DNA from: Owenia fusiformis
Taxonomy: Eukaryota > Annelida > Polychaeta > Sabellida > Oweniidae
Length of the DNA: 64,000 nucleotides
Reading direction: 5' to 3'
Assembly: GCA_903813345.2 (NCBI GenBank)
Contig: CAIIXF020000008.1
Span: forward strand, 33,132,867-33,196,866
Positions 3,049 to 48,237 of this stretch are shown here, in pieces. Position 1 is the first letter of the stretch. Every line of letters begins with the position of its first letter. Under the pieces are notes generated by a model, which searched no databases, was not told the DNA's origin, and saw only the letters and a list, made by a program, of their open reading frames with translations. The position numbers and the translations under genes are program-made.

Positions 3049-4097
3049 ATGGAATTCTGCTGGAGCAGGATGGTTGGTTTTTCTACAAATGCAAAGAATG
3101 TCCGGAGTTTTTCGAAGCATTCGATACGCCATCTGTTTTAAATCAACATATGAAAGGACACCATTCTGATTACTTCATGAAATGTGAAGACTGTGAAATG
3201 CCATTAACATATTCACATGGAAAAGATCAATATTACAAACATAGGCTAGCTCATAAAAATATCAAACCAAATAAGTGCTCAATTTGTGATGCAGCTTTTA
3301 ATCAAGCAAGAGATTTGAAAATTCATTGCTATAAAAAGCATGGCATTAATTTCTACCGAAAATCAGGAGAATTATATAATCCTGAAGAGTGGCAATGTGA
3401 CCTATGTGGACAAGTATATGCTAGGAAAACGAGCTTAGAATACCACATTCTATCTCAACATAGTGGGCTTAAAAAGACATTTCAGTGTGCACTGTGTTCG
3501 CTATCTTATTATACTGAGGAAACGTTGAAGATACATGTTAAAGAAGCACATGAACAGATGTCTATTTGTGATATATGTGGAGCAGAAATTAGGATGGAAA
3601 ATCTTAAGCAACATTTAAGCAAAATTCATGCCCAAAAGAAATGTCTACATTGTTTAGAAACCTATGAAACTTTGAATGATCTAAAACGCCATGTTGAGAA
3701 ACATAGAGAATGTTATGAATCCTCGAAGGGATTATTCACACAATGCAAACTTTGTCTCAAGTTATTTACTCAGAAAAATATGTTACAAAGACATATTGAC
3801 AATATACACAATCCAGATAAGAAGTTCAGATGTAATCAATGTGAAAAAGCATATTCTACAATGTACAGATTAAAGAACCATATGCTATGTCACACGAAAT
3901 CTATATCATGTACATATTGTGACAAAAAATTCTCTTATAAGAACCACTTGAAAGAGCATTTAAGGATCCATTTAGGGATATATCCCTTTAAATGTGAAAT
4001 ATGCGGGAAGGCCTTCACCCATAATGGGAGCCTTTATAAGCATAAGCAGACACACAGGAACACATTGAATGAGAGTGATAAGAATGAAACATTATAG
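3049..4097 (+). CDS. Exon A: 11-finger C2H2 zinc-finger terminal exon (A-type)
   Basis: The exon encodes about 349 residues, nearly all of it zinc fingers, so the product is probably a nuclear DNA-binding protein; its target is unknown. Eleven C-x2-C...H-x3-5-H units run from CKECPEFFEAF (about residue 15) to CEICGKAFTHNGSLYKH near the C-terminus. Finger 7 ends in H then REC. Linkers are irregular except before the last finger (LGIYPFKC). The exon starts after GGTTGCAG (AG 3047-3048) with a split codon ending AT, then GGA, the same phase as all sister exons. An in-frame ATG at 3039 lies in the presumed intron; its counterpart is TTG or GTG in several sisters, so I do not take it as the start. 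It is the only intact A-type exon; relics of the type lie near 10.8, 11.0 and 16.4 kb. Confidence 0.85.
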
Positions 4098-4408
4098 TTG
4101 GTTTTTATGAATGGTAACAATGGCTGATTGAATTCCATTTTTGCAGATAAGCATATTTCCAATAGCTTTACAAATACTGTTTGGACTGACTTCATTTTTT
4201 CAAAATCATCTACAAGTTTTCAGAAGTCAAATCTGACTTTCCATTTTAGATTTGACCTTCAATGAACTTATCAAGGTCAAAAAAGGTTGAATATTGAATA
4301 TATTACATTATATGGACATATAATATGCAACAATAGTACATGATATATAGAGGGTATGTGGCCCAACATGATCGATAAAATTCCTACATAAATACACGTA
4401 GGTGGTAA

Positions 4409-4414
4409 AATAAA
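4409..4414 (+). terminator. Candidate poly(A) signal for exon A
   Basis: AATAAA lies 312 bp after the stop of exon A and is the first canonical hexamer on the + strand there. In AT-rich DNA chance matches are common. Confidence 0.4.
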
Positions 4415-4674
4415 GGCTTATTTTGAAATTCACTTAATTGTGCAGTATACCAGAAAAATATACTTTCAAACAAAATGTTATGTTGTTTATAATTCCATTA
4501 AATTAATATACTTGTACATGTATATGCATACATTAAATTAATGTTGATAGTTGTATCATCTAGTATTTTTGTGCATAGAATTAATAAATTGTTGCATTTA
4601 TCCAATATACCAGTGTGTTATGCATATCTACCATTTTAGATCAATTAGTGGCATTTGGTACCAGTATTGTTCAG

Positions 4675-4765
4675 TTTTTATGTCACCACCAAATGTGGTG
4701 ACATATTGTTATGGTCTCCGTTTTTGTGACGGCGGTTGGTGGTTGGTGTTTGTAACAAAGGAGGA
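4675..4765. repeat. End fragment related to the 128-1754 element
   Basis: ATGTCACCACCAAATGTGGTGACAT is a short hairpin followed by ATTGTTATGGTC. It parallels the start of the element at 128 (ATGTCCCCACCACATAG, then TGTGGGG and CATATTGTCGG). No matching right end was found, so this is a fragment or a diverged relative. Confidence 0.45.
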
Positions 4766-5199
4766 GGGAAATTAGGGTAACAGATTTTGGACAGTCATAT
4801 GTTCAAGAATTTTGGTCATTTTCTGAGGATTTAATCAATTACATATGTTAGGTCAATGCATTACCTCCAGGAAAACCACTTCTAGAGATGATAAAATAAT
4901 TTCGACTTTGAGACAAGGTAGATGCAAACTACCCACCCACATGTTTTTTCTGAAATGTTTTTCTGATTTTCGACCCCTTCCATCCCTGCTTTTTAATTTT
5001 TCTTGTATCAATATGTTGCGTTTTGACACATAGTTAACCACTTCAAAGGAGTAAGTGATTCCTCTAGGGGTTTTAAAGATACCCATTATGGGTTACCAAA
5101 CTTAGCTGAAAGCAATGATTTTCCCTATGGGAAAATAACATGGGGAATATTGTTTTCCACTTTATCTAAAAGGAATCACTCATTCCTTTTAAGGGATTA

Positions 5200-5870
5200 A
5201 CTGTGTGATTTTTTCAGAAGTTTGAAGCTGATTTAAGATTTGACCCTAAATGAACTTTAGAAGGTTAAAAGGGTTAAAAATGTCAAAAAGGTCTTTTTTC
5301 AAGTTCCTTCACATTGATTAAATGTTTTGAAGTTCAAATTTGACTATAGATTTGAGACTTGACCTACAATGACCTTCTCAAGGAAAAGTTAAAAAAGGTC
5401 TTTAGATTAAAAAGGGTCAAAAGGTATTTTTCAACTTGCTTCAAATTGATTGAATGTTTTCTTCAATATTAAGTTCTCAGAAGTTCAAATTGATTAATAT
5501 TTTTCTTCAAAATCATCTACGAGTTCTCATAAGTTCAAATCTTGCTTCAAATTGACAATTTTTTCTAAATCATCTTCAACTACTCAGAAGTTCAAATCTG
5601 ACTTTAAATTGTCTATGAGTTCTCAGAAGTTCAAATCTAACTATAGATTTGAGACTTGACCATCAATGACCTTCTTAATGTCAAAAAGGTACTTTATCAA
5701 CTTGCTTGAAATTGGCTTAATTTTTTTTCAAAATCATCTACAAGTTTATAGAAATTCAAATCTGACTTAAGAGATTTGACCTGGTAAAAAAGGTCTTTAG
5801 TTTAAAAAAGGTCAAACAGGTATTTTTCAGCTTGCTTAAGATTGATTAAATTTTCTAGGTGGTGGTTTAT
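5200..5870. repeat. Degenerate tandem repeat with AAGTTCAAATCTGAC / GACTTGACC motifs
   Basis: Imperfect units of roughly 100-150 bp carry the words AGAAGTTCAAATCTGAC, TTTGAGACTTGACC and GGTCAAAAAGGT. A related stretch follows exon A (4190-4290). The 70-bp repeats upstream of exons J and M use similar words (GAAGTTGAAATCTGACC), suggesting one old repeat spread through the array. Confidence 0.55.
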
Positions 5871-5879
5871 AGCGTCAGA

Positions 5880-6830
5880 ATTGATATATTGTAAATGTTC
5901 AAAGAAATGCATAAAAAACATCAAACAATAAACGATGTTTTGATTCAAATTGTAGAAGCATCAAAGCAAATTTTCAAAATATCAAACATCAAAAAGACTC
6001 AAAAATCATTTTCAAAACTTTGAATAAGAACAGGAAATATGTCAAATTAGATAATCACATATCTATCAAACCCAATGTTCAAACTAATATTAACACCACA
6101 CTAAACTAACTTTATGTTTTGAACTTCTGTCCATTTCCTGTTTGAAGTTATCATTTTTATGTTATAACTTCAAAGTTATTCTGCAATTTAAACCTATGGA
6201 CATTATTCTTATTCAATCTTTCATTTTTCTATTCGGATTTTGATTCTCAAGTTGAATTTTTGGGGTTTGAACTTTGGACAATTTTGGTTTGAACTTTTTG
6301 TACCATTTTAGTTCGAAATATTTTTAATATTTTGGGTCAAATCTTTTTCACATTTTTGGATTCGAAATTGAATGAAGCATATTTCAAAATTAATAGCTTC
6401 AGTATTTTTCGAATGATACATTATCTGGCAATTCGAAAACATATTTCAGTTTGACACTTCACTTTTATTGCTTTTTGTTGTTTTGTTTTCAGTGTTTGAT
6501 ATGTTATCTTTAGTTCAATGTTTTTTTTCTTTTGAAGTTGTTTTTTCTCAGTTTGACTTAAGATTTAGACATGGATGAGATGTGTTACTATTCATTTGAA
6601 ATATTAAATACTGAAAATGGATTGATTGAATAAAAACTTCACATTTCAACAAAACCTTTTTAATTGAAAAGTGCAATTTCAAACAAGAAAAGACAATTAT
6701 CAAACATAGAATTGAATAATTTGAAGAGAAATGGGAAACCTTGAACTGAAAGTGAAAAGTTAAATTAGAAAAATAAAATGTCAACTATAAAATTGAAAAG
6801 ATTGAATAAAGACGTAGAAAAAATGCCATA
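5880..6830. repeat. Low-complexity A-rich/T-rich block
   Basis: Dominated by words such as TTCAAA, GAACTT and AATTGAA, with an A-rich part (5885-6090), a T-rich part (6100-6545) and another A-rich part (6590-6830). The switch of strand composition gives weak foldback potential. An open frame on the minus strand here reads as low-complexity and is not supported as a gene. Confidence 0.45.
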
Positions 6831-7100
6831 GTGATGACATTTTGTCATATTAATGCCTTATACATTTTTATGGAATCTGAGATCACCAAAATGATTACAG
6901 TGTTCTGCACAAGATTTTTTTCTCAAGTGGGTAAAATTTTTCATAATTTGCGCAAGGGTGCAAATGGATTTTTCACATGGGTGCAAATGGATTTTCACAT
7001 GGGTGCAAATGGATTTTTAAATCTCAGGTGGGTGCTGCGCCCACTTGCTTTAATGCTGGAGAGACCACTGTATCAATGTTTATTGTGAAAATTTATTGTT

Positions 7101-7134
7101 GATTTCCTAATCTTATGATTAATTTTGGTTTCAG
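7101..7134 (+). promoter_or_regulatory. Conserved 3' splice region of exon B
   Basis: CTAATCTTATGATTAATTTT then GGTTTCAG closely matches the same region before exons D and F, whereas DNA further upstream does not obviously align. The CTTATGAT word could hold the branch point; GGTTTCAG is the acceptor. Confidence 0.6.
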
Positions 7135-8249
7135 ATGGAGACCTAATAGAAAAGGATGGATGCTTTGTCTACCAATGTAAAGAATGCCCTAAGAATTTCC
7201 TAGCTTTTGTCTGTTCTATCACTCTTTTTGTTCATCATATGAAAGAACACCATTCAGATTATTTTCTCAAATGTGCAGATTGTGGACTCCAGCTAGACTA
7301 TTCTCATTTAAATAACAAAAACTATTTCAAACATCGTTTGAGTCACATTAAACCATTTAAATGTACATTGTGCAAAAAAAGTTTTTATGACTCTAGAGGG
7401 ACACAGTGCCAAGAGTGTAGAGCTGGCGTCTATTTGGAAACAGGAAAGCCATCAAAAGACTGGAAATGTGAAATGTGTGGACGGAAATATAACCGCAAAA
7501 GAGCCTTAAATGCTCACATTAGGGATTACCATGTTGGAGAAAAACATGGACTCACTTATCAATGCGAAGTTTGTGGGCAAACCTATACGGATAAAAGAAA
7601 CTTGAATAACCACCTTTTATCTGTGCATAATAGTGGAACAGAAAAGAAGATCCAATGTAAAGATTGTTCAAGGTTCTTTTTCACAAAATCTAGATTAAGA
7701 AATCATATAAGGACTAGTCACGTAGAGAATGCCATTTGCATTAAATGTGGATGTGGGGTTAAGCCTACATACCTCAAAAGACATATGAGTAAATGTAATG
7801 AAGAAGCCATATGTCCAAATTGTTTGAGCAAGTTCAAAACAAAAAAGGATCTAAAACTTCATGGGGAAAAATCTAAAGAATGTTACGAATCTTTAAAAGA
7901 CATTTTCCCACAATGTACATTTTGTGATAAACTATTTATGGATGACTGCAACCTAAGAGAACACCAGAGAGGGTCACATAGTGTTAAAAAATTCAATTGC
8001 GATCAATGCGATAAAGCTTTTTCCACAAAATCACACTTAAAACGCCATTTAAAATCACACTCTAAAACCTTACAATGTACACATTGTGACAAAATGTTTT
8101 CTTATGCAAAAAATCTAAAGGATCATATCAGAATCCATCTTGGGATAACTCCATATAAATGTGAATTATGCAATAAGGCCTTTACACAATATGGGACCCT
8201 TTATAGGCACAGGCAGACTCACAGTAGAACCAAAAAGAATACTTTTTAA
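7135..8249 (+). CDS. Exon B: C2H2 zinc-finger terminal exon (group 2)
   Basis: Encodes about 371 residues and opens with the group-2 signature DGDLIEKDGCFVYQCKEC. Fingers 1 and 2 are C2H2. In place of finger 3 is a four-cysteine knuckle, CTLCKKSFYDSRGTQCQEC. Fingers 4 and 5 are C2H2, finger 6 ends H-x3-C (CIKCGCGVKPTYLKRHMSKC), finger 7 is C2HC-like (ends SKEC), and four regular fingers follow to CELCNKAFTQYGTLYRH. The frame enters through GGTTTCAG (AG 7133-7134) in the shared phase; the codon in the intron at the place of exon A's ATG is TTG, so no local start is available. Probably a nuclear DNA-binding module. The C-terminus is a basic RTKKNTF tail. Confidence 0.85.
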
Positions 8250-9840: not shown

Positions 9841-10710
9841 ATGGACTACTTGTGGAGCATAGAGAATGGTTTGCCTTCCAATGTAAAGAATGCCTAGAAT
9901 ATTTTCCAGCATATAATCCCACATACGGATCCTTTGTTCGGCATATGAAAGGACATCATTCAAATTATGTTGTCAAATGTATGGATTGTGGCGTTTGTTT
10001 AAATTTTAGTTGTGGAAAACATCGTTATTTCAAGCATCGTCTGGCTCACATGGGTGTTAAGCCAATAAAATGTTCAATTTGTGAGGCAACATTTACTGCT
10101 TTGAAAGGTTTAAAGTCTCATTCTTATAGGAAGCATGGATTGGATGTTGTTATGAAATCTGGAAAAGTTTCCAACCCCAAAGACTGGCAATGTGACTTTT
10201 GTGGACAAACATTCACCGAAAACCAGTCCCTGAAATATCATATTTTGGCTAAACATAGTGGATGTGAAAGAAAATTCCATTGCAAGAAGTGTTCTTCTTC
10301 TTTCTTAACTGAGTCAAAATTGAATAACCATCTCAGGGAAAAACATGTGTCCGCTGTTTGTAATTTATGTGGAAGGGTAATGCAAAATGGTAGTTTGAGG
10401 AAACATTTGAAACATATGCATTGAGATAAAAGATGACCCATGGAATGATGTGAAACTCCACATGGAAAAACACTTGTGGAGTTGTTAAAAATCCATGTGA
10501 AATCTCACTCAAAAGAACCTACCATGTACATATTGTGACAGAAGGTTCTCTTATAACAATCACTTAAAAGAGCATATGAGGATTCATCTGGGGATATTCC
10601 CATACAAATGTCAAATATGTGGGGAGGAATTTACACACAATGGGAGCCTTTATAGGCATAAGCAGACACATAGGAACAAAAATGTTGACAAGGAAAAAGC
10701 CTTACAATGA
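9841..10710 (+). pseudogene. Exon C: broken group-1 zinc-finger exon
   Basis: It starts at a good acceptor (ATGTTTCCAG, AG 9839-9840) in the shared phase and reads DGLLVEHREWFAFQCKEC through six fingers to KHLKHMH, then stops at 10422-10424. The 3' part is still recognisable to 10710 (GTGACAGAAGGTTCTC, then CATATGTGGGGAGGAATTTAC, ending CCTTACAATGA) but out of frame, and several hundred bases covering fingers 7-9 are missing compared with exon E. The 5' 190 codons are intact, so a short six-finger product is conceivable if the acceptor is used. The 3' UTR-like flank is group-1 type (TCATCACTTGACTTTGC). Confidence 0.8.
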
Positions 10711-10784: not shown

Positions 10785-10870
10785 AATCAGACACAGGAAT
10801 GTATTGAATGACATGGAAAAGAATTTAACTTATCCAGTGTTTAAACCAGCTACAAATATATCTCCAAATT
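10785..10870 (+). pseudogene. Relic of an A-type exon tail (first copy)
   Basis: CACAGGAATGTATTGAATGACATGGAAAAGAA parallels the end of exon A (CACAGGAACACATTGAATGAGAGTGATAAGAA), followed by a TATCCAGTG flank shared with the relic near 11.09 kb. It abuts the 3' flank of exon C directly. No open frame survives. Confidence 0.55.
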
Positions 10871-10969: not shown

Positions 10970-11160
10970 TTTTTGGGATATATTCACTTCAATGTTAATG
11001 TAAGAAGGCTTTTATGAACATAAAAAAACACACAGAAACACATTAAATGACAAGGAGAGGAATGAAACATTACTATCCAGTGTACAATTTCAAACATATC
11101 TTCACAATTTTTGATATAATGGCTATTCTTAGATCAAGGTTATGAGTAATAAAGATTTAA
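10970..11160 (+). pseudogene. Relic of an A-type exon tail (second copy)
   Basis: GGGATATATTCACTTCAATG is followed by GGCTTTTATGAACATAAAAA, ACACACAGAAACACATTAAA and GAATGAAACATTAC. This keeps the order of the last finger, the tail and the ATGAAACATTA end of exon A. It is broken and lacks all upstream fingers. Downstream it shares TATCCAGTGTACAATTTCAAA-like sequence with the other relics. Confidence 0.65.
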
Positions 11161-11825: not shown

Positions 11826-12919
11826 ATGGAGACCTAATAGAAAAGGGAGGATGCTTCATCTACCAATGTAAAGAATGTCCGGAGTATTTTATAACCTCCA
11901 AATGTTCCTTCAGTGTCTTTGTTCGTCATATGAAAGGACATCATGCAAATTATTTTCTCAAATGTCCTGATTGTGACCTTCAATTAGATTATTCTGATCA
12001 CAATAAGAATTATTACCATCATCGTTTGGGTCACATTAAATCATCAAAGTGTCCACGTTGCAACACATGTTTTTATGACTGTAGAGGTTCAACATGTCCA
12101 GACTGTAGATCTAAGATAGTAGCCATGAAATCGGAAACAGGAAAGCCATCTAAAGACTGGGAATGTGAAATATGTGGACGGAAATATTTCAAAAGAAGTA
12201 GCTTAAATCTTCACAAGAGAATAGACCATGGTGGACAAAGATATCAATGTGACATTTGTGGACAATCATATAGGCGGCAACAAAACTTAGATTATCACAT
12301 TTTGTCAGCCCACAGTGGAACCGAAAAGAAGTTCCAATGCAAAGATTGTCCACGTTCCTATTTCACAAAATGTAAATTAACCAGACATATGAAATCCTGT
12401 GGTATTGAGTATGCTATTTGCAGTGAATGTGGACGTGAGGTTAAGCCTATGAACCTCAAAAGACATATGAGTAACTGCCATGAAGAGGCCACATGTCCAA
12501 ATTGTTTGAGCAAGTTTAAAACTAAAACAGACCTAAAACAACACATGGAAATATCCAAAGAATGTTTTGAATTTGCAAGAGACATTTTCCACCAGTGTAC
12601 ATATTGTCCTAAACTTTTCATTGCCGAGTTCTTATTAAGAAAACATCAGAGCAATGTTCATAATCCAATTAAAAAATTCAAATGCGATCCATGTAATAAA
12701 GCGTATTCCACTCAAGAAAAGTTAGACTACCATGCAATATCGCACTCTAAAACCTTGTCATGTACACAGTGTGACAAAATGTTTTCTTATTTAAAAAATC
12801 TGAAGGAACATATGAAAAAAATGCATCTTGGAACTCAATATAAATGTGTTATATGCAGAAAAGCCTTCACACATCGTGAGACCCTAATTAGGCACAGGCA
12901 AACATGTCATCCGCAATAA
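11826..12919 (+). CDS. Exon D: C2H2 zinc-finger terminal exon (group 2)
   Basis: Encodes about 364 residues opening DGDLIEKGGCFIYQCKEC. Layout matches exon B: fingers 1-2, then a four-cysteine knuckle CPRCNTCFYDCRGSTCPDC in place of finger 3, then fingers 4-11 ending CVICRKAFTHRETLIRH. The frame enters at GGTTTCAG (AG 11824-11825) and the aligned intronic codon is TTG. The C-terminus is short (QTCHPQ): just after the stop, sequence resembling the normal tail (TTAGGCACAAGCAG, then AAAAAGAATACTTC) follows, so a small insertion or duplication appears to have cut the tail by a few residues. The linker before the last finger is shortened (HLGTQYKC). Probable nuclear DNA-binding module. Confidence 0.85.
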
Positions 12920-14795: not shown

Positions 14796-15847
14796 ATGGA
14801 TTACTTGTGGAGCATGGAGAATGGTTTGCCTTCCAATGTAAAGAATGCCCAGAATATTTTCCAGCATATCATCTCACACCCAGATCCTTTGTTCGGCATA
14901 TGAGAGGACATCATATGGATTATTTTGTCAAATGTATGGATTGTGGCATTTGTTTAAACTATAGTTGTGGAAAAAATCGTTATTTCAAGCATCGACTGGC
15001 TCACATGGATGTTAAGCCAGTAAAATGTAATGTTTGTGAGGCAACTTTTACTGATAAGGAAAGCTTGAAGATCCATTCTTATAGAAAGCATGGATTGGAT
15101 GTTGTTTTAAAATCAGGAGAAGTGTCCAACCCCAAAGACTGGCAATGCGACTTGTGTGGGCAAATATTTAGAAGGAACAAGGCTCTGGAATATCACATTT
15201 TGGCGAAACATAGTCAATGCGAAGGGAAATTCCATTGCAAGGAATGTTCTCATTCTTTTTTAACTGAGTTGACATTAAAGCATCATGTCAAGGAATGTCA
15301 TTTACAGGTTTCCACTGTTTGTCATTTATGTGGAACAGTTTTGCAACCTGGGAGTTTTCGCTTACATTTTAAATATGTGCATGGTGACAAAAAATGTCTT
15401 AATTGTTTGAAGACATTCGACACATTAAATGATATGAAACTCCATGTGGAGAAACATAAAGAATGTTTTGATTCCATGGAAGATGTTTTTCCAAAGTGCT
15501 CAATTTGTCATAAAATATTAACTACATCATCTAATTTAAAGCTGCATATGGAAAGATCACATAATCCAGATAAAACATTTACATGTGATAAATGTGATAA
15601 AGCTTATTCTACAAGAAAGCAGTTAAATTTCCATGTGAAATCTCACACAAAGAACATACCATGTACTTATTGTGGCAGAAAGTTCTCTTATGAGAAGCAC
15701 TTAAAAGAGCATATGAGGATTCATCTTGGGATATTCCCATACAAATGTGAAATATGTGGGAAGGCCTTTACACACAGTGCAAGCCTTTATAGACATAAGC
15801 AGACACACAGGAACAAAATTGTTGACAAAGAAAAAAGCTTCCAATGA
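14796..15847 (+). CDS. Exon E: 11-finger C2H2 terminal exon (group 1)
   Basis: Encodes about 350 residues opening DGLLVEHGEWFAFQCKEC. All eleven fingers keep metal ligands, from CKECPEYF (residue ~15) to CEICGKAFTHSASLYRH; finger 7 is followed by KEC. Between fingers 3 and 4 is the group-1 spacer SGEVSNPKDWQCDLCG, and before finger 9 HNPDKTFTCDKCDKAYST. Enters from ATGTTTCCAG (AG 14794-14795) in the shared phase. The in-frame ATG at 14786 belongs to the intron end and is replaced by GTG in exon I. A poly(A) signal lies 84 bp past the stop. It is the intact group-1 partner of unit 2 in the array. Probably a DNA-binding nuclear protein module. Confidence 0.87.
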
Positions 15848-16329: not shown

Positions 16330-16480
16330 GTGTGAATGTTGGAGCGTTTGGTTTTTACACATAGTGATATTGAATGACATTGATAAAAATGAAACATTAT
16401 AACCCAATATTTATGTACAGCTTCAAAATTTTCTTAATAGTGTGCAATATTCAATGGTTATCAAAATATCAATGATACAA
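16330..16480 (+). pseudogene. Relic of an A-type exon tail (third copy)
   Basis: ATTGAATGACATTGATAAAA followed by ATGAAACATTATAACCCA matches the tail of exon A and the relics near 10.8 and 11.1 kb, including the following flank with TATTCAATGGT. Upstream finger sequence is only faintly visible (GTGTGAATGTTGGAGCG). Confidence 0.6.
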
Positions 16481-17402: not shown

Positions 17403-18514
17403 ATGGAGACCTTATAGAAAAGGGAGAATACTTTGTCTACCAATGTAAAGAATGCCCACAGCACTTTCCAGCCATCATCAGTTCTTTCCTGGATTTTGTT
17501 CGTCATATGAAAGGACACCATACAGATTATTTTCTCAAATGTGCAGATTGTGGCCTTCAATTAGATTATTCTAATCGAAATAAAAAGTATTACCATCATC
17601 GCTTAGGTCACATTAAATCATCAAAGTGTCCACGTTGCAACACATGTTTTTACAGCTCTGGAGGTTCAACATGTCACGACTGTAGATCTCGAGCAGTAGG
17701 CGTCCAATTGGAATCAGGAAAGCCATCGAAAGACTGGAAATGCAAAATATGTGGACGGGAATATTTCTGGAGAAAAAGCTTAAATCTCCACATGAGGGAA
17801 GATCATTGCAAACAAAAACACTATCAATGTGACGTTTGTGGACAAACATATAGGCGACAACAAAACTTAGATTATCACATTTTGTCAGCCCATAGTGGAA
17901 CTGAAAAGAAGTTCCAATGCAAGGATTGTCCACGCTCCTATTTCACAAAAAATACTTTAAAAAGACATATGAAATCTTGTGGTATGAAGTATGCTATTTG
18001 CAGTAAATGTGGACGTGAGGTTAAATCAAGACATCTTGAAAAACATATGAATGACTGTCATGAAGAGACTTATTGTCCAAATTGTCTCAACAAGTTTACA
18101 ACTAAAACAGATCTGAAACAACATATTGAAATATCCAAAGAATGTTTTGAATCTGCAAGAGACATTTTTCCACAATGTAACACTTGTCTTAAAGTATTCA
18201 ATACCAAGTTCAATTTAAGAAAACACCAAAGAACTGTACACAATCCAATAAAGAAATTCAAATGCTGTCAATGTTACAAAGCTTATTCTACGAAACAACA
18301 GTTAGACCACCATGCAACATCCCACATAAAAACCTTTACATGTACACATTGTGACAAAAAGTTTTCTTATTTAAAATATCTGAAGGAGCATGTGAGAATT
18401 CATCTTGGGATAACCCCATATAAATGTGTTATATGTAGTAAGGCCTTCACACATCGTCAAACACTTATTAGGCACAAGAAGACCCATAATCAAACCAAAG
18501 ATAATACGTCTTAA
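17403..18514 (+). CDS. Exon F: C2H2 zinc-finger terminal exon (group 2)
   Basis: Encodes about 370 residues, DGDLIEKGEYFVYQCKEC at the start. Two C2H2 fingers, then the knuckle CPRCNTCFYSSGGSTCHDC, then fingers 4-11 to CVICSKAFTHRQTLIRH and a KKTHNQTKDNTS tail. Finger 6 ends H-x4-H (HMNDCH), unlike B where the final His is lost. Acceptor GGTTTCAG (AG 17401-17402), shared phase, aligned intronic codon TTG. Much of the middle (from RRQQNLDYHILSAHSGTEKK to SYFTK) is identical to exon D, so the two are close paralogs. No poly(A) hexamer close to the stop; the best candidate is the AATAAA at 20488. Confidence 0.86.
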
Positions 18515-21691: not shown

Positions 21692-22752
21692 ATGAACTCC
21701 CTGTGGAGCATGGAGAATAGTTTGCCTTCCAATGTAAAGAATGCAAAGAATATTTCCCAGCATTCGAATTAGAACCCACACCTTGGGTGTTTGTTCACCA
21801 TATGAAAGGACACCATATGGATTATTTTGTCAAATGTGTGGATTGTTGCCTTTCTTTAAACTTAGGGGATGGAGGTACTTGTTATTTCAAGCATCGTCTG
21901 GCGCACATGAATGTCAAGCCAGTAAAATGTACAATTTGCAAGGCAACGTTTACTGATGAGAGGAATTTGAAGATCCATTGTTATAGAAAGCATGGATTGG
22001 ATTTTGTTTTGAATCAGGAGAAGTGTCCAACCCCAAAGACTGGCAATGTGACTTATGTGGAAAAGTATATACTGAAAACAAGGGCCTGAAGTATCACATT
22101 TTGGCTAAACATAGTCAATGTGAAAAGAAATTCCATTGCAAGGAGTGTTCATCTTCATATTTAACTGAGTCGAAATTAAGGGTGCATATACAAGAAAGTC
22201 ATTCCCAGGAGTCTGCTGTTTGTAATTTATGTGGAATCATATTAGTGCAATCAAGAAATTTAAAGGAACATTTGAAACAGGTACATGGTGATAAAAAATG
22301 TCAAAACTGTTTGAAGAAATTCGACACATGGAATGGTTTGAAGCTCCATGTGGAGAAACATAAAGAATGTTTTGAATCCATGGAAAAAAAAGTTTCCACA
22401 ATGCTAAATTTGTCATAAAATATTTACCACAATGTCAAAGTTAAAGCTGCATATGAGAAGCTTACATAATCCAGATAAAGAATTTACATGCGATCAATGT
22501 GATAAAGCTTATTCTACAATGGAACGGTTAAAAATCCATGTGAAATCTCACACGAAGAACATACCATGTACATATTGTGACAGAAAGTTCTCTTTTAACA
22601 ATCACTTAGAAGAGCATATAAGGATTCATTTGGGGATATTCCCATACAAATGTGAAATATGTGGGAAGGCCTTTACACACAATCGGAGCCTTTATAGGCA
22701 TAAGCAGACACATAGGAACAAAAATGTTGACAAGGAAAAGGCCTTACAATGA
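21692..22752 (+). pseudogene. Exon G: broken group-1 zinc-finger exon
   Basis: Acceptor TGTGTTTCCAG (AG 21690-21691) and phase are intact, but the conserved Trp codon in HGEW is TAG at codon 10. Further on a one-base loss near 22012 (TTGAATCAGG against TTGAAATCAGG in sisters) and a one-base gain in an A run near 22386 break the frame. The three open segments, about 21787-22010, 22023-22386 and 22432-22752, together cover all eleven fingers with good ligand conservation, so decay is recent. The 3' flank most resembles that of fragment K. A product from this exon would be only about ten residues. Confidence 0.88.
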
Positions 22753-30878: not shown

Positions 30879-31930
30879 ATGAACTTCTTGTGGAGCATGG
30901 AGAATGGTTTGCCTTCCAATGTAAAGAATGCAAAGAATATTTCCCAGCATTCAAACCCACACCTCGAGTGTTTGTTCGCCATATGAAAGGACACCATATG
31001 GATTATTTTGTCAAATGTGTGGATTGTGGCCTTTGTTTAAATATAAGGGATAGAGGTAGTTGTTATTTCAAGCATCGTCTGGCGCACATGAATGTCAAGC
31101 CAGTAAAATGTACAATTTGCAAGGCAACGTTTACTGATAAGAGGTCTTTGAAGACCCATTCTTACAGAAAGCATGGCTTGGATGTTGTTTTGAAATCAGG
31201 AGAAGTGTCGAACCCCAAAGACTGGCAATGTGACTTATGTGGAAAAGTATATAATAAAAACAAGTCCCTGAAATATCACATTTTAGCTAAACATAGTCAA
31301 TGTGAAAAGAAATTCCATTGCAAGGAGTGTTCGTGTTCATATTTAACTGAGTCGAAATTAAGGCAACATATACAGGAAATTCATTCCCAGGAGTCTGCTG
31401 TTTGTAATTTATGTGGAATCATATTGAAATCAAATTATTTAAAGAAACATTTGAAACGCGTACATGGTGATAAAAAATGTCAAACATGTTTGAAGGAATT
31501 CGACACATGGAATGATTTGAAGCTCCATGTGGAGAAATATAAAGAATGTTTTGAATCCATGGAAAAAAAATTTCCACAATGCTCAATTTGTCATAAAACA
31601 TTTACCAAAATGTCAACGTTAAAGCTGCATATGAGAAGCTTACATAATCCAGATAAAAATTTTACATGTGATCAATGTGATAAAGCTTATTCTACATTGG
31701 AACAGTTAAAATTCCATGTAAAATCTTACACAAAGAACATACCATGTATGTATTGTGACAGAAAGTTCTCTTATAACAATCACTTGAAAGAGCATATGAG
31801 GATTCATCTGGGGATATTCCCATACCAATGTGAAATATGTGGGAAGGCATTTACACACGATGGGGGCCTTTATAGGCATAAGCAGACACACAGGAACAAA
31901 AATGTTGACAGCGAAAATGCCTTACAATGA
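30879..31930 (+). CDS. Exon H: C2H2 terminal exon (group 1)
   Basis: Encodes about 350 residues starting (D)ELLVEHGEWFAFQCKEC. Eleven finger positions as in exon E. Finger 7 is followed by YKEC instead of HKEC, and finger 9 has lost its second His (FHVKSYTK for KSHTK), so these two probably bind zinc weakly or not at all. The rest keep all ligands. Acceptor TGTGTTTCCAG (AG 30877-30878), shared phase; the first full codon is GAA, not GGA. A poly(A) signal at 32004 lies 74 bp downstream. The 5' flank carries a hAT-like insertion ending 130 bp before the acceptor, which might affect splicing. Confidence 0.85.
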
Positions 31931-34871: not shown

Positions 34872-35923
34872 ATGAACTACTTGTGGAGCATGGGGAATGG
34901 TTTGCCTTCCAATGTAAAGAATGCCAAGAATATTTCCCAGCATTCAAACCCACACCTCGAGTGTTTGTTCGCCATATGAAAGGACACCATATGGATTATT
35001 TTGTCAAATGTGTGGATTGTGGCATTTGTTTAAACTTAAAGGATAGAGGTATTTGTTATTTCAAGCATCGTCTGGCGCACATGAATGTCAAGCCAGTAAA
35101 ATGTACAATTTGCAAGGCAACGTTTACTGATGAGAGAAATTTGAAGATTCATTCTTATAGAAAGCATGGATTGGATGTTGTTTTGAAATCAGGAGAAGTG
35201 TCCAACCCTAAAGACTGGCAATGTGACTTATGTGGAAAAGTATATACTGAAAACAAGGCCCTGAAGTATCACATTTTGGCTAAACATAGTCAATGTGAAA
35301 AGAAATTCCATTGCAAGGAGTGTTCGTCTTCATATTTAACTGAGTCGAAATTAAGGATGCATATACAGGAAATTCATTCCCTGGAGTCTGCTGTTTGTAA
35401 TTTATGTGGAATCATATTGAAATCAAATAATTTAAAGAAACATTTGAAACAGGTACATGGTGATAAAAAATGTCAAAACTGTTTGAAGGAATTTGACACG
35501 TGGAATGATTTGAAACTCCATGTGGAGAAACATAAAGAATGTTTTGAATCCATGGAAAAAAAGTTTCCACAGTGCTCAATTTGTCATAAAACATTTACCA
35601 AAATGTCAATGTTAACGCTGCATATGAGAAGCTTACATAATCCTGATAAAAAATTTAAATGTGATCAATGTGATAAAGCTTATTCTACGATTGAACAATT
35701 AAAAATCCATGTGAAATCTCACACAAAGAACATACCATGTATGTATTGTGACAGAAAGTTCTCTTATAACAAGCACTTGAAAGAGCATATGAGGATTCAT
35801 CTGGGGATATTCCCATACAAATGTGAAGTATGTGGGAAGGTCTTTACACACAATGGGAGCCTTTATAGGCATAAGCAGACACACAGAAACAAAAACGTTG
35901 ACAAGGAAAAGGCCTTACAATGA
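34872..35923 (+). CDS. Exon I: 11-finger C2H2 terminal exon (group 1)
   Basis: Encodes about 350 residues, (D)ELLVEHGEWFAFQCKEC to a DKEKALQ end, with all eleven fingers carrying their ligands. Acceptor TGTGTTTCCAG (AG 34870-34871), shared phase; the aligned intronic codon is GTG, which argues against translation starting in the intron. It is close to exon H, with changes often in finger helices (TDERNLKIH against TDKRSLKTH; YTENKALKYH against YNKNKSLKYH). The AATAAA seen after exon H is altered here; the next candidate is at 36146. Exon L is its deleted duplicate. Confidence 0.87.
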
Positions 35924-39412: not shown

Positions 39413-40476
39413 ATGGACTGTTGGTTGAATGGGGAGATTGGTTCAACTTCAAATGTCCAGAATGCCAACAACATTTTCCCGCCTACTACAGTACATGTTA
39501 TCCAAACTTTCTTATTAGTCATATAAAAAAGCGTCACCATAGGGGTTATTTTGTCAGTTGTATGGACTGCGGCATACGTCTGAAGTACCTCAACTACAAA
39601 AAGCATCGCTTGGCTTGTATGAATATCAAGCCATATAAATGTTCGCACTGTGATGCATCTTATACCTATGGGAAGGCTTTGAAAATGCATTGCTATAAAA
39701 AGCACAGTGTGAATCCAACTTATGACAGATCTGGAGAAGTTTGGAAGCCAAAAGTGTGGATTTGTAAAGTGTGTGATCGCACATTTAATTACCAACGAAA
39801 CTTTGAGTATCACATGCTGAGTAAGCATAGCAGAGCTAAGAAGAAATTTAATTGTAACGAATGCACACTGTCCTATTTTACCAAGGAAAGATTGAGGCAT
39901 CACATTAGCCTAAGTCATTGCCGGGATAACATTGTCTGTGACTTATGTGGCATGGAAATGATGTCAACCAAGTTGAGGTTCCACATGAAGACTGCGCATA
40001 AACCTAAAAGCAAATGTTTACATTGTTCTGAGACATTTCAAACTAAATCTCAACTTAAATTGCATGTGATGAAACACAAAGACTGTTTTGAGTCCATGAA
40101 AGAAGTTTTTCCACAATGTAAACTATGTTTGAAAGTATTTTCTTCAAAACATAATTTTGACCTACATATGCTCGATACACATAACCCAGAGAAGAAATAC
40201 AAGTGCAGACAATGTGACAAAGCCTATTCTACACAAAACAGATTGCACGATCATGAGCAAAGTCACATTAAGAATTTAACGTGTACATATTGTGGAAAAA
40301 CTTTTGGTCGTCGAGGACATCTGAATTTTCATACAGAGATTCATTTAGGCCTCAGGTACAAATGTGAAGCATGTGGCAAATCTTTTAAGCACAAGAGTTA
40401 TTTGACTTCGCATAAACACAAAGGGATCAAATGTACCAGTGATCCTAAAAAATCAAACGATGAAGTCCAAAGCTGA
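39413..40476 (+). CDS. Exon J: C2H2 zinc-finger terminal exon (group 3)
   Basis: Encodes about 354 residues opening DGLLVEWGDWFNFKCPEC. Eleven finger positions: finger 2 is CMDCGIRLKYLNYKKHRLAC, where the last His is replaced by Cys; the others keep their ligands, ending CEACGKSFKHKSYLTSH plus a basic tail with KCTSDPKKSND. Acceptor TTTGTTTCAG (AG 39411-39412), shared phase. A C run of ten lies about 40 bp upstream. The spacer before finger 4 is longer than in group 1 (YDRSGEVWKPKVWICKVC). Its near-duplicate is exon M. No clear AATAAA follows closely. Confidence 0.86.
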
Positions 40477-40676
40477 AAACATCCATCTTTGTACCAAATA
40501 TTTTTGTTTTCTTGATTTTATTCAGTAATGTTTTTTCAAAAAGTTGACCTAATTTTCACCTTAAGTGCAATCTTTTATTATATTGTTGAATGCATAATTA
40601 GAATGTGCTTTGAGACATGTTATATTTCCTGAAAGGAAAAGCTGATTCCCCCATTGACTTTAAAGATACTGAATTT

Positions 40677-40858
40677 ACATTTTGTGACAGAAAGTTCTCT
40701 TATAACAAGCACTTGAAAGAGCATATGAGGATTCATCTGGGGATATTCCCATACAAATGCGAAGTATGTGGGAAGGCCTTTACACACAATGGGGGCCTTT
40801 ATATGCATAAGCAGACACATAGGAACAAAAATGTTGACAAGGAAAAGGCCTGACAATG
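40677..40858 (+). pseudogene. Fragment K: last two fingers of a group-1 exon
   Basis: Begins abruptly inside finger 10 (TTTGTGACAGAAAGTTCTC) and runs through finger 11 to a stop (GCCTGACAATGA). Left of 40677 the DNA matches the exon M downstream flank (TTAAAGATACTGAATTT at 48701-48717), so this is a duplication junction. No acceptor precedes it. Its 3' flank (TGATAACCGGATATGCTG) is closest to that of exon G. Confidence 0.85.
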
Positions 40859-41379
40859 ATAACCGGATATGCTGTATGCAGAATAACATTTTCATCTTTT
40901 TCAATCATCATTTGTCTTTGCATTTAAAGGCAGAATCAGTTTTTTGAATAAATTATTTTATCTTTTGAATACAAACAATATACTAGTACAAATGCAGGTT
41001 GGGGTGAATCGCCTTACGGTATTTTATCCCAATATAAATTTACAATAGAAAGCATATTCAAGATTCAAATAGCTAAATTTTGGACAAATATAAAATAAAG
41101 ATGACATTAGAAGCACCAGTACCACTCAAGTGAGTGACTCAAATGCACATTAGCAATTTTCACTTTCAGCACATCATAAATGCTCCAAAGGGACTTCTGT
41201 GTTGATGGCAATAAAATAAGTTACACATACAGCACATATTTATTGTTAGATATTATATTATCAATGGATAAGCATCATACATCTTGATTTTTCAACTGAT
41301 ATTGTTCTGGTTTCTATAGTTCTGGCATTATCATCATATATGCTGAATATATGTTCTATACTAGTTTTGATTGAATATG

Positions 41380-43564: not shown

Positions 43565-44093
43565 ATGAACTCCTTGTGGAGCATGGAGCAATGAAAATAA
43601 TTTAAAGAAACATTTGAAACAGGTACATGGTGATAAAAAATGTCAAAACTGTTTGAAGGAATTTGACACTTGGAATGATTTGAAACTCCATGTGGAGAAA
43701 CATAAAGAATGTTTTGAATCCATGGAAAAAAAGTTTCCACAATGCTCAATTTGTCATAAAACATTTACCAAAATGTCAATGTTAACGCTGCATATGAGAA
43801 GCTTACATAATCCAGATAAAAAATTTACATGTGATCAATGTGATAAAGCTTATTCTACAATGGAACAATTAAAAATCCATGTGAAATCTCAAACAAAGAT
43901 CATACCATGTATGTATTGTGACAGAAAGTTCTCTTATAACAAGCACTTGAAAGAGCATATGAGGATTCATCTGGGGATATTCCCATACAAATGTGAAGTA
44001 TGTGGGAAGGCCTTTACACACAATGGGAGCCTTTATAGGCATAAGCAGACACACAGAAACAAAAACGTTGACAAGGAAAAGGCCTTACAATGA
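43565..44093 (+). pseudogene. Exon L: internally deleted copy of exon I
   Basis: The acceptor and first codons (ELLVEHG) are intact, then about 520 bp covering fingers 1-6 are gone and the sequence resumes at AATAATTTAAAGAAAC. The join shifts the frame, so a spliced product would end after about a dozen residues (first in-frame TAA within ATAATTTAA). The open frame downstream (about 43614-44093) still codes fingers 7-11 with good ligands and is nearly identical to exon I, so the deletion is recent. Confidence 0.87.
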
Positions 44094-46072
44094 GTACATG
44101 ATATGCTTTTTTCAGAAAGAATTCTCTTTTTCAATCATCATTTGACGTTGAATTTAAAGGCAGAATCAGTTTTTTAAATCAATAAGTTTATCTTTTGAAT
44201 TAAATGAATTGCAGGTTTGGGGTGAATCGCCTCACGGCATTTCATGTCCCCACATAAAAATTTACAATAGAGAGCATATTCAAGATTCAAATAGCTAACT
44301 TTTGGACAAATATAAAATAAAGATGACATTAGAAGCACCAGTACCACTCAAGTGAGTGACTCAAATTCACAAAAGCAATTTTCACTTTCAGCACATCATA
44401 AATGCTCCAAAGGGATTTCAGTGTCAATGGAATTAAAATAAGTTACACATACAGCACATATTTATTTGTAGATCCTGATATTATCAATGGATTAGCATAA
44501 TGCATTTTGATTTTTTCAATTGATATTATTCTGGCTTCTATAGTTCTGACATTATCATTATATGCTGAATGTATGTATTATACTAGTTTCGATTGTATAT
44601 GCCTTTGATTTGATTGTAAAAATTTAAAACACATAAAATTCTCATTGAACCTTTTAAATTGGAAAATTATCGGATGATTAATTTCTGTAAAAATATGAAA
44701 TGGTACATAACACATTTATTAGAATGAAAATTCATAAATTTTAATTATAAAGATTTATGTGCCACTTGATTCATGGAGTGCTGATCTTTAAATAATTCGA
44801 TTGCATGATGACTTCCAATAACAAGTAAATGATGTTTCAAAATGAACATCCCCCAAGTAGGTGTTCAGAATCCGTACCTCTTTCTTCTGGGAAAGAGAAA
44901 CAAGATATTCTAGATTTTATTTATTTATTTATTTGCAAGTATAAATGCAGGAACATGTAAGTGAGGATTGGCTGGATGTAATTTAAAGCTTTTTACATTT
45001 ATATTTTCTGTATATACGTGTGTATGAAACTAATAAATTATTTACCGCATCACCATGCTTGCCTATTAACTGTTAACAATGACCAAATTGAAAGGTTCTA
45101 ATAATATTTTATATCTTTAGAAAACTAATCTCAAAACCACAAATAGTAACTAGAAATAAGACCCCTTGTACCCAAATGGATGATTTCTTCTTCATGCATT
45201 ATTGTTATGACTTCGGTATGAATGAAATGTCGCCTATTGTTCTGGTCCTAGATTGTGATATTGCTTCTCTATGGGAAAGGGGATGTTTTAGGGGGAATAT
45301 TTATTTTCACGTAAGATCATACATTCGGTCTATTTTTCGTATGGCAGGTTTACACTTTGAGTTTGCTTTTCTTGCTAGATAGCTTTTGGTCTTTTCCATT
45401 AGCATTTGTGCTGATGCTTATAATTATTAGGAGGTCTCAATTCAACAGTTTTAAGGTTAGATCTAAATTGCTTAAAAATTGGTAAGGATTAAAAGGTGGA
45501 TTGGATTGGGTGTATTTGATTCATGTAAAATATGGATTGGATTGGAATTCTGCAAAATATGGAACTTCCATAGTTTAAAGATTGAATTGAATATGCTGAA
45601 CAGATGGTGGTAAATTCATCTGTATGTGACTACACTATCCTGGATAGAACGATGTATTTCAACCTACAACCCAACTGACACACTTCAAAATAATTTAATC
45701 AAAACACTTTACTTTTTAGGGAATATGTTATTCACCCGCTTGATTGTGAGTTTACATTCATAAATAAATTTATCTACATTAATATCGAAAGTAAATATCA
45801 TATGTATATCTATATATGTTGTGATCAGCATTGAGATCAATTACTAGCAAGATAAATCGAAAGCATATGATGTCACCAGAAGTGTGACCCTTGAGATATA
45901 TATTTTCATTATACAGGACAATATCAGGCAATAAAACAATTAGCATTACGAAACCAAAACATTCAATAACATAATATATATTATGTCAACCAATTTTCCT
46001 TTAGCCCCTTTAACCTGCTACTTACTGCCCCCCTTAAACATATGTAAGACCTGATAAACATATCAAATAACG
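44094..46072. other. Non-coding gap between exons L and M
   Basis: Duplicate of 35924-38236 with two deletions of several hundred bases in total (around 44918 and 45170). No gene seen. Confidence 0.6.
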
Positions 46073-46486
46073 CAGATGCGAGTAGGTAGTTACCAGATTC
46101 ACCACCAGGTTAATGGTTCGGGTCAGATAGCATGGCGGGTATAGTCGAAAGTTCCCTTTAACTTAAATGACATTTGTTTTAATTTTCATATAACCCTTAT
46201 GTATCTAATAGTTATGCAAGTTGAAATATGTCCAGTAAAAGAAACTGTTATCTGTCCAATACAAGAAAATATAATTCACTTTTTGTGATTTTGTAACATG
46301 GGGTCTATGGGGAGTCAACCCGAACAAGAAGTCACATTTTCGAGAAAAAAAATTTCAAAGTTGATAGACAATTTTGGAAACCATATTTCTAGATGTACCT
46401 TTACATGCAGATTTCAAATATGACATTGCTTTGATTGAATTTTAAATATTAAATTACGTAAATCAAGATTATTTCTACTCGCATTT
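46073..46486. mobile_element. MITE family 1, copy 2 (about 414 bp)
   Basis: Duplicate of the 38237 copy at the same position of the segmental repeat, so it was inserted before the duplication. Confidence 0.8.
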
Positions 46487-46824
46487 AGTCTATTGAAGAG
46501 TGGATGTTCCTAAACCATTTCTGCATTGAAAACAGATGATATGGATCTTCAAAGCAGTCTGGCTTATGATTTACGACTTGTCTTAAACCACCCTTTTGGT
46601 TTAAGAAGTGTATCAGAAGTGGGGCACTAGGTCAATCCCTTCTAGTCCATCCAAAAAATATAATATAATATATATTATTTGACATTGTGAAAGTGAGGAG
46701 AGCACCAATTCTAGAGGTAGTCTTAAAGAAATTCCATATTTTGAAGAAACCCAATCCAATCCACCTTTTAAATGAATCCAATCCACTCGATCCAATCCAG
46801 TTTTATTCTTTACCTAAAATATTG

Positions 46825-47030
46825 CCATACTGTATATATTTCTCAAAATCAAGTTTCGAGAAGTCAAAATTTGACCTTTGATTTGAGACTTTTGCCATAC
46901 TGTATAATATTACCCAAATTCAAGTTGCAAGAAGTTGAAATCTGACCTTTGATTTCAGACTTTTGCCATACTGTATATATTACCCAAATTCAAGTTGCAA
47001 GAAGTTGAAATCTGACCTTTGATTTCAGAC
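46825..47030. repeat. 70-bp tandem repeat, three copies, upstream of exon M
   Basis: Same unit as at 38989 (GCCATACTGTATA...), one copy fewer. Confidence 0.85.
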
Positions 47031-47173
47031 TTGAAGTTCTGTTGACCTTCAAAAGGTCAAGATCTTCTTCTGGGTAAGATTGCTTGGCATTGTAAATGTC
47101 AAGTTCATATTGTAATATAGATCCCCCCCCCTTATTGAGCCACTGGACTTACATCATCCATTCTTTGTTTCAG

Positions 47174-48237
47174 ATGGACTGTTGGTTGAATGGGGAGATT
47201 GGTTCAACTTCAAATGTCCAGAATGCCAACAACATTTTCCCGCCTACTACAGTACATGTTATCCAAACTTTCTTATTAGTCATATAAAAAAGCGTCACCA
47301 TAGGGGTTATTTTGTCAGTTGTATGGACTGCGGCATACGTCTGAAGTACCTCAACTACAAAAAGCATCGCTTGGCTTGTATGAATATCAAGCCATATAAA
47401 TGTTCGCACTGTGGTGAATCGTTTTCCTGTGGGAAGGCTTTGAAAATGCATTGCTATAAAAAGCATAGTGTGAATACAACTTATGACAGATCTGGAGAAG
47501 TTTGGAAGCCAAAAGTGTGGATTTGTAAAGTGTGTGATCGCACATTTAATTACCAACGAAACTTTGAGTATCACATGCTGAGTAAGCATAGCAGAGCTAA
47601 GAAGAAATTTAATTGTAACGAATGCACACTGTCCTATTTTACAAAGGCAAGATTGAGGCTTCACATTAGCCAAACTCATTGCCGGGATAACATTGTCTGT
47701 GACTTATGTGGCATGGAAATGATGTCAACCAAGTTGAGGTTCCACATGAAAACGGCGCATAAACCTAAAAGCAAATGTTTACATTGTTCTGAGACATTTC
47801 AAACTAACTTTCAACTTAAATTGCATGTTATGAAACACAAAGACTGTTTTGAGTCCATGAAAGAAGTTTTTCCACAATGTACATTATGTTTGAAAGTATT
47901 TTCTTCAAAATATAATTTTGACCTACATATGCTCGATACACATAACCCAGAGAAGAAATTCAAGTGCAGACAATGTGACAAAGCCTATTCTACAAAATAC
48001 AGATTACACGATCATGAGCAAAGTCACATTAAAAATTTAGCGTGTACATATTGTGGAAAAACTTTTGGTCGTCGAGGACATCTGAATGGTCATATGGAGA
48101 TTCATTTAGGCCTCACGTACAAATGTGAAGTGTGTGGTAAATGTTTTAAACACAAGAGTCATCTTAATTCGCATAAACACAAAGGGATCAAATGTACTAG
48201 TAATCCTAAAAAATCAAATGATAAAGTCCAAAACTGA
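47174..48237 (+). CDS. Exon M: C2H2 zinc-finger terminal exon (group 3)
   Basis: Near-duplicate of exon J, about 354 residues, entering at TTTGTTTCAG (AG 47172-47173) in the shared phase with DGLLVEWGDWFNFKCPEC. Fingers 1 and 2 are identical to J; from finger 3 on there are about 28 residue changes, often in finger helices (FSCGKALKMH against YTYGKALKMH; FTKARLRLH against FTKERLRHH; GHLNGH against GHLNFH). All ligands present in J are kept, which argues for continued function. A candidate poly(A) signal lies at 48827, about 590 bp downstream. It is the last zinc-finger exon before the palindromic insertion. Confidence 0.86.

What the first reader, a model, noticed from the sequence alone, without database searches (positions are those of the whole stretch)
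3049..48237. One-strand array of at least 13 zinc-finger exons that look like alternative 3' terminal exons
Nine intact and four broken exons, each a complete block of about 11 fingers. Every exon with a preserved 5' end begins directly at a splice acceptor, and each intact one ends in its own stop. All are on the + strand, and the intervals carry no shared coding exon. Established parallels for the architecture are Drosophila lola and mod(mdg4), where a constant 5' part (BTB domain) is joined to many alternative finger-bearing 3' exons, in part by trans-splicing. I infer that this locus makes a family of transcription factors sharing one N-terminal domain coded left of position 1. The exon sequences are not ones I recognise, so this may be an independent, undescribed example.
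Basis: partly seen in the sequence, partly recalled or inferred. Interest (0 to 1): 0.92.

Follow-up and report, generated by a model that had tools for sequence, protein, structure and literature searches.

The report
Array of alternative zinc-finger end exons
A stretch of animal DNA carries nine whole and four broken copies of one long zinc-finger coding exon, each whole one starting at its own splice site and ending in its own stop, which look like interchangeable endings for one gene so that it could make many different DNA-binding proteins; the splicing itself has not been shown.

Summary
The copies are under purifying selection (dN/dS 0.17-0.43 in the 31 of 36 pairs where it could be computed). 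Between old copies, similarity is concentrated on the end of an intron with CAG (12 of 12 copies with a 5' end) and the exon; in the ten pairs examined it fades 13-81 bases before the exon and within about 80 bases of the stop. The first in-frame ATG lies inside finger 1 or 2 and the frame enters in phase 1, so upstream coding sequence is needed. No convincing upstream coding exon is shared between copies; a planted-exon test shows that one of 60 bp or more would have been seen for E4/E6. One 64-bp block before E2 and E4 stays unexplained. The best reading is alternative 3' terminal exons joined to a common N-terminal part left of the window. This works like Drosophila lola and mod(mdg4), but swaps arrays of about 11 fingers. 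BTB and trans-splicing are analogy only. Private 5' exons are the main rival. Taxon unknown; no transcripts.

The parts
3049..4097 (+). E1, intact finger exon, subfamily A, 11 fingers
   Evidence: open frame, CAG acceptor at 3046-3048, own stop
7135..8249 (+). E2, intact finger exon, subfamily B
9841..10710 (+). E3p, broken exon, subfamily C: internal deletion, second part in another frame
   Evidence: tblastn and blastn pieces against E9
11826..12919 (+). E4, intact finger exon, subfamily B; stop lies in a partly duplicated tail
14796..15847 (+). E5, intact finger exon, subfamily C, 11 fingers
17403..18514 (+). E6, intact finger exon, subfamily B
21692..22752 (+). E7p, broken exon, subfamily C: early stop and frame changes
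   Evidence: three main tblastn pieces in two frames; early stop read
30879..31930 (+). E8, open finger exon, subfamily C, with zinc-ligand changes in two fingers
34872..35923 (+). E9, intact finger exon, subfamily C, 11 fingers
39413..40476 (+). E10, intact finger exon, subfamily D
40682..40859 (+). E11p, 3' remnant of a subfamily C exon
   Evidence: 95.5% to E9 exon bases 875-1052
43565..44093 (+). E12p, broken exon, subfamily C: acceptor and first bases kept, large internal deletion
   Evidence: matches E9 exon bases 1-22 and 554-1052 only
47174..48237 (+). E13, intact finger exon, subfamily D
11008..11072 (+). relic tail of an A-type finger exon
   Evidence: 80% to E1 tail, E 7e-13; 14 of 22 residues identical
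16369..16401 (+). relic tail of an A-type finger exon
   Evidence: 91% over 33 bp to E1 tail, E 4e-7
10791..10829 (+). possible further A-type relic tail (weak)
   Evidence: 77% over 39 bp, E 2e-4
7103..7134 (+). conserved acceptor block of subfamily B (same block at 11794-11825 and 17371-17402)
   Evidence: 26-29 of 32 bases alike, against 13-15 of 32 in the next 32 bases upstream, ungapped

Best explanation
The window holds an array of alternative 3' terminal exons of one animal gene. A constant 5' part, left of position 1 and not in hand, supplies the start codon and an N-terminal region and ends in phase 1. It is spliced to one of up to nine open finger exons, each of which ends translation with its own stop and adds its own DNA-binding array. 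The array grew by tandem duplication of blocks of exons with their acceptors, losing some copies, and selection keeps the zinc-binding frame while base-contact residues differ. Shown: the exons, their acceptors and stops, the selection, the lack of a convincing shared upstream coding exon between copies. Inferred: the constant part, its place, its domain, and the choice of exon, by cis- or trans-splicing.
For: Purifying selection: dN/dS 0.17-0.43 in 31 of 36 pairs, the other 5 having saturated synonymous sites, and many of the 31 being near saturation. Nonsynonymous change is depleted in 4 of 4 pairs tested, including the young E8/E9 (p 3e-5) and E10/E13 (p 0.005). CAG acceptor in 12 of 12. 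In subfamily B the last 32 intron bases match in 26-29 of 32 (p 1e-4 to 3e-3 against the synonymous-site level) and 13-15 of 32 just upstream (ungapped). First in-frame Met at codon 34-50, inside finger 1 or 2, in 9 of 9 intact exons; the first 36 alignment columns are constrained (pooled dN/dS 0.28 over four pairs). In 5 of 9 intact exons no ATG lies between the acceptor and the nearest upstream in-frame stop. An artificial exon of the divergence of E4/E6 planted in their intervals was found in 38 of 40 trials at 40 bp and 40 of 40 at 60 bp or more; the real matches there are weaker (66-70%) and lie at or beside A-type relic tails. No Pfam match above its cut-off, other than fingers, in the + strand intervals scanned between 1 and 58139. 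None of 32 GTAAGT or GTGAGT sites lies inside the 13 exons, which fill 12,295 of 64,000 bases.
Against: No transcript, no sequence left of position 1, no other genome and no taxon, so the constant part is inferred only. A 64-bp block at 4600-4660 and 11500-11562, upstream of E2 and E4, matches at 76.6%, as high as the exons themselves (74.7%); 10 of 15 residues agree in one frame before a one-base gap breaks it, and I found no counterpart before E6. Other weaker blocks occur upstream of C-type copies. A private 5' exon that is noncoding up to an ATG plus one base, or changes quickly, would escape the planted-exon test, which has less power for older pairs (E1/E5: 20 of 40 at 40 bp, 33 of 40 at 60 bp; E2/E6: 29 and 35 of 40). 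A GTAAGT recurs upstream of four C-type copies (20547, 27200, 33906, 42862). Weaker GTAAG or GTGAG words occur 9 times inside the exons. Poly(A) signals after the stops are not clearly above background.
Confidence: 0.61

Rival explanations
1. A cluster of separate tandem zinc-finger genes, each with its own promoter and its own short 5' exon (mostly untranslated, giving only a start codon and a base or a few residues), as in vertebrate finger-gene clusters but with a trivial N-terminus.
For: Finger genes often lie in clusters thought to arise by tandem duplication (PMC2443715, start of abstract in the listing). A noncoding 5' exon need not be conserved. A GTAAGT recurs upstream of four C-type copies. 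The 64-bp block upstream of E2 and E4 is as conserved as the exons.
Against: Of six pairs of intervals compared, four gave matches; only E2/E4 reached exon-level identity, and its frame is broken after 15 residues. Neither GTAAGT nor GTGAGT occurs in the intervals before E3p, E4, E5 and E6, and before E6 none of five donor-like words searched occurs at all (weaker donors possible). The interval before E4 is about 1.1 kb and part of it is relic finger exon. A phase-1 entry common to all four subfamilies would have to be kept by many independent 5' exons.
Confidence: 0.27
2. Intronless genes that start at an ATG just upstream of the supposed acceptor.
For: An in-frame ATG lies upstream, before any stop, in E1, E3p, E5, E8 and E10.
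Against: Absent in 7 of 12 copies, including 5 of 9 intact ones; E3p and E5 differ by small gaps upstream of the acceptor; CAG kept in 12 of 12 although synonymous sites between subfamilies are near saturation.
Confidence: 0.04
3. A mostly dead array: one or two exons are used and the rest are recent or decaying copies.
For: Four broken copies and two or three relics; E8 has lost ligands in two fingers; E4's tail is partly duplicated; part of the array is a young duplication.
Against: Nonsynonymous changes are depleted in 4 of 4 pairs tested, two of them young; all four subfamilies keep open frames.
Confidence: 0.08

Closest known systems
Drosophila lola
   Same: A common N-terminal part with alternative C-terminal parts, most with C2H2 fingers; at least 20 isoforms (PMC5127561, passages); trans-splicing takes part (PMC12692577, introduction).
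   Different: Most lola isoforms are said to contain two zinc fingers (same passage, cut short in what I saw); here each exon carries about 11 units. The common BTB part is not seen here. Here all exons are alignable paralogues of one ancestor.
mod(mdg4) of flies and Lepidoptera
   Same: One donor part and over 30 isoforms with alternative 3' exons (PMC12692577, abstract); expansion by duplication of the acceptor units (PMC4667647, passages).
   Different: Its variable regions mostly hold FLYWCH domains and some lie on the opposite strand; here C2H2 arrays, one strand only. Trans-splicing not testable here.
Vertebrate KRAB zinc-finger gene clusters
   Same: Tandem arrays of finger blocks each in one exon that opens at a splice acceptor (recalled).
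   Different: There each gene has its own 5' exons (recalled; a cluster paper, PMC2865497, was seen in passages only). Here none is convincingly detectable between copies.
Chelicerate Dscam with tandem 5' cassettes and clustered protocadherins
   Same: Tandem variable exons and a constant part (PMC4835542, start of abstract in the listing; the constant part of protocadherins is recalled).
   Different: Those vary the 5' end and are cell-surface proteins (partly recalled); this varies the 3' end of a putative transcription factor.

Membership tests
lola-like or mod(mdg4)-like locus (working principle) | Several equivalent 3' exons, each with acceptor, same entry phase and own stop | tested here: met
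   12 of 12 copies with a 5' end have CAG at the same phase-1 position; 9 of 9 intact ones have their own stop. Use of the acceptors in RNA not tested.
lola-like or mod(mdg4)-like locus (working principle) | No private coding 5' exon per copy | tested here: inconclusive
   None convincing within the power of the planted-exon test, but a 64-bp block before E2 and E4 is unexplained and very short or noncoding 5' exons are not excluded
lola-like or mod(mdg4)-like locus (working principle) | A common 5' part joined to the variable exons in mRNA | not testable with these tools
   Would lie left of position 1; no genome held and no transcripts
BTB-zinc finger family | N-terminal BTB domain | not testable with these tools
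   No BTB match in the + strand frames scanned; the expected place is outside the window
mod(mdg4) | Variable exons with FLYWCH domains | tested here: not met
   In the four exons scanned (E1, E2, E5, E10 of 13) Pfam lists only zinc-finger type families, mostly C2H2, and no FLYWCH
mod(mdg4) / lola | Trans-splicing | not testable with these tools
   No RNA data
C2H2 zinc-finger proteins | Repeated C2H2 units matching the Pfam model | tested here: met
   PF00096 E 8e-18 to 1e-32 in four of four exons scanned; 9 or 11 strict units in each of nine intact exons

The most novel reading that the evidence does not exclude
An independently evolved locus, possibly outside arthropods, in which one gene swaps an entire DNA-binding array of about 11 fingers by choosing one of many tandem alternative terminal exons, with base-contact residues diversifying faster than the rest of the exon, so that one regulator domain is delivered to many different DNA addresses.
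Probability: 0.36. Interest if true: 0.82.

Novelty: new variant of a known kind. Interest (0 to 1): 0.63.

Why it matters
If true, it is a single gene that behaves like a whole zinc-finger family: one N-terminal effector and up to nine complete DNA-binding arrays. That would extend the lola and mod(mdg4) principle from small finger units to whole polydactyl arrays, and give a further lineage in which to ask how one terminal exon among many is chosen and whether trans-splicing follows from this architecture.

Tried and rejected
Shared upstream exon between copies: interval against interval tblastx and sensitive blastn (my script cut the tblastx listing after about 80 rows, and I2, I3 and I6 are the only query intervals in what was printed, while the blastn list is full). 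The matches for E4/E6 are at or beside A-type relic tails. The E2/E4 block (4600-4660, 11500-11562) lies about 500 and 430 bases after the stop of E1 and the end of the nearby A-type relic, so it may be old A-type 3' flank (inference), but it is as conserved as the exons and I leave it open. Blocks upstream of C-type copies show no shared open frame by my reading.

First version of a claim, mended: I had taken the conserved unit to end exactly at the stop. Gapped comparison of ten old pairs shows similarity from 13-81 bases before the exon start to between 35 bases before and 80 bases after the stop, with a few short outlying blocks; part of the poor match after E4's stop comes from its duplicated tail.

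Upstream domain in the window: Pfam scans of + strand frames with stops read as X over most intervals from 1 to 58139, and of minus-strand frames of 1-3032 and 4098-7108 only. Weak matches below the families' cut-offs, dropped: ELFV_dehydrog_N, DUF3898, DUF4819, ANGEL2_N. Not scanned: + strand 40477-40853 and after 58139 (except the reverse-transcriptase frame), and the rest of the minus strand.

Positive selection at contact residues: amino-acid differences are 1.75 per contact column against 0.97 elsewhere (5 within-subfamily pairs that share members; none of 20,000 permutations as high), and 0.44 at zinc and core columns. But dN/dS at contacts is below 1 wherever it could be computed (7 of 9 pairs) and synonymous differences there are often high too, so I claim diversification, not positive selection.

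Relatives elsewhere: none in viral contigs or prokaryote genome contigs, as expected for an animal locus; no animal collection was on hand. No own genome. Rfam and tRNA searches: nothing. Literature: ten searches showed no description of such an array in the listed titles and abstract starts; this is open-access text only, the terms were narrow, and most listed papers were not opened.
Full report
What is there. On the + strand of a 64-kb, 33.7% GC window there are nine stop-free zinc-finger exons and four broken copies. I name them E1, E2, E3p, E4, E5, E6, E7p, E8, E9, E10, E11p, E12p and E13, p marking broken ones. Identities and a tree of all 13 suggest four subfamilies: A (E1), B (E2, E4, E6), C (E3p, E5, E7p, E8, E9, E11p, E12p) and D (E10, E13). 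Tails of further, nearly erased A-type exons lie between E3p and E4 (11008-11072, perhaps also 10791-10829) and between E5 and E6 (16369-16401). So an older repeating block C-A-B seems to have been copied (E3p - relic - E4, then E5 - relic - E6; inference). A much younger tandem duplication copied 31753-40546 to 40682-48307 at mostly 92-97% identity, 88% in one piece.

The fingers. A strict C2H2 pattern matches 11 times in E1, E5 and E9 and 9 times in E2, E4, E6, E8, E10 and E13, where some units are altered. Pfam gives C2H2 families in four of four exons scanned. The nearest solved structures to E5 are ordinary polydactyl finger proteins such as ZNF568, CTCF and PRDM9, which says only that it is a finger array.

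Selection. Of 36 pairs of intact exons, dN/dS lies between 0.17 and 0.43 for 31; the other 5 have saturated synonymous sites, and between subfamilies many of the 31 are near saturation. In the four pairs tested for significance nonsynonymous change is depleted (p 5e-11 to 0.005), including the young pairs E8/E9 and E10/E13. Contact positions of the finger helices differ more (1.75 differences per column, 44 columns) than other positions (0.97, 284 columns) and than zinc and core positions (0.44, 66 columns) over five within-subfamily pairs that share members; dN/dS at contacts is below 1 in the 7 of 9 pairs where it could be computed, so this is diversification under constraint and not proof of positive selection.

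The acceptor and the frame. All 12 copies with a 5' end have CAG at the same place, although synonymous sites between subfamilies are near saturation. In B, 26-29 of the last 32 intron bases match and only 13-15 of the 32 before them, ungapped; with gaps E4 and E6 still match weakly back to 80 bases. In ten old pairs compared with gaps, similarity starts 13-81 bases before the exon and ends between 35 bases before and 80 bases after the stop, apart from a few short outlying blocks. The frame enters in phase 1: the first two exon bases, AT, finish a codon, and the ATG with which the exon itself begins is out of frame. The first in-frame Met lies at codon 34-50, within finger 1 or 2, in 9 of 9, and the first 36 alignment columns are constrained (pooled dN/dS 0.28 in four pairs). 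A start codon and coding sequence upstream of the acceptor are therefore needed.

No convincing upstream exon between copies. If each copy were the end of its own gene, close relatives such as E4 and E6 (82.6% identical in blastn) should share upstream coding sequence. Six pairs of intervals were compared. Planting an artificial exon of matching divergence showed detection in 38 of 40 trials at 40 bp and 40 of 40 at 60, 90, 150 and 300 bp for E4/E6; power falls for older pairs (E2/E6 29 and 35 of 40, E1/E5 20 and 33 of 40, at 40 and 60 bp). Four of the six pairs gave real matches. Those of E4/E6 (66-70%) lie at or beside A-type relics. Those of E5 with E8 and E9 are AT-rich blocks of 49-64 bp at 73-75%; an alignment of that flank in five C-type copies shows no shared open frame by my reading. 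The E2/E4 match is 64 bp at 76.6%, as high as the exons (74.7%); 10 of 15 residues agree in one frame, then a one-base gap breaks it, and no counterpart was found before E6. I do not think it is an exon, but it is the best lead for the rival. Neither GTAAGT nor GTGAGT occurs in the intervals before E3p, E4, E5 and E6. Pfam scans of + strand frames over most intervals from 1 to 58139 gave nothing but fingers above the cut-offs; the C2H2 matches there fall on E7p and E9.

What speaks against, or is left open. The constant part is not in hand, there is no RNA, the species is unknown, and no animal collection could be searched (searches found no relative in viral and prokaryote collections). A private untranslated first exon ending in a start codon plus one base is not excluded. 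A GTAAGT recurs upstream of E7p, E8, E9 and E12p (20547, 27200, 33906, 42862); it is in young duplicated flank, and the frame leading to it shows no start codon by my reading. Five of 12 copies have an in-frame ATG shortly upstream of the acceptor. E8 and E4 show signs of possible decay. Poly(A) signals are uninformative.

Comparison. The working principle is that of lola (at least 20 isoforms, common part with a BTB domain; PMC5127561, passages) and mod(mdg4) (over 30 isoforms, all trans-spliced, alternative 3' exons with own promoters, some on the other strand; PMC12692577, abstract and introduction; acceptor expansion in insects, PMC4667647, passages). It differs in that each variable exon is a whole array of about 11 fingers, that all copies descend from one exon, and that all lie on one strand. 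Membership in the BTB family is untested. The Tramtrack-type BTB was reported only from Arthropoda (PMC11426971, passages), so outside arthropods the constant part, if it is a BTB, should be of the other type.

Verdict. Observation confirmed; interpretation partly supported. Most likely an array of alternative 3' terminal exons (0.61), next a cluster of separate genes with trivial 5' exons (0.27). A new variant of a known kind if transcripts bear it out.

Noticed in passing
48893-51475 and 59574-62483: Two copies of a retroelement with a reverse transcriptase (PF00078) in opposite orientation, 99.9% identical over 1,534 bp, each with tandem repeats of 14- to 63-bp units. It looks like a Penelope-like element with a GIY-YIG tail (label recalled, not from a call). 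Seen.
   Followed up: partly
38987-39267 and 46822-47032: A 70-bp tandem repeat (4 and 3 copies) ends 141-145 bp upstream of the acceptors of the two D exons, inside the supposed intron; single diverged matches lie at 4213-4280, 5329-5388 and 5618-5684.
   Followed up: no
685-1729: A satellite of 162-bp units, 6.5 copies, left of the first exon; the only open frame of 90 codons or more listed before E1 lies in it.
   Followed up: no
4600-4660 and 11500-11562: A 64-bp block upstream of E2 and E4, 76.6% alike, with 10 of 15 residues shared in one frame before a frame break; old 3' flank of A-type exons or a lost or unknown element.
   Followed up: partly
20547, 27200, 33906, 42862: A donor-like GTAAGT kept in the duplicated flank upstream of four C-type copies; meaning unknown.
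   Followed up: partly
30879-31930: E8 is open but has lost zinc ligands by H-to-Y changes in fingers 7 and 9, perhaps the first step of decay.
   Followed up: no
12840-13020: The 3' end of E4 matches the tails of E2 and E6 twice, 73 bases apart, so its stop lies in a partly duplicated tail.
   Followed up: no
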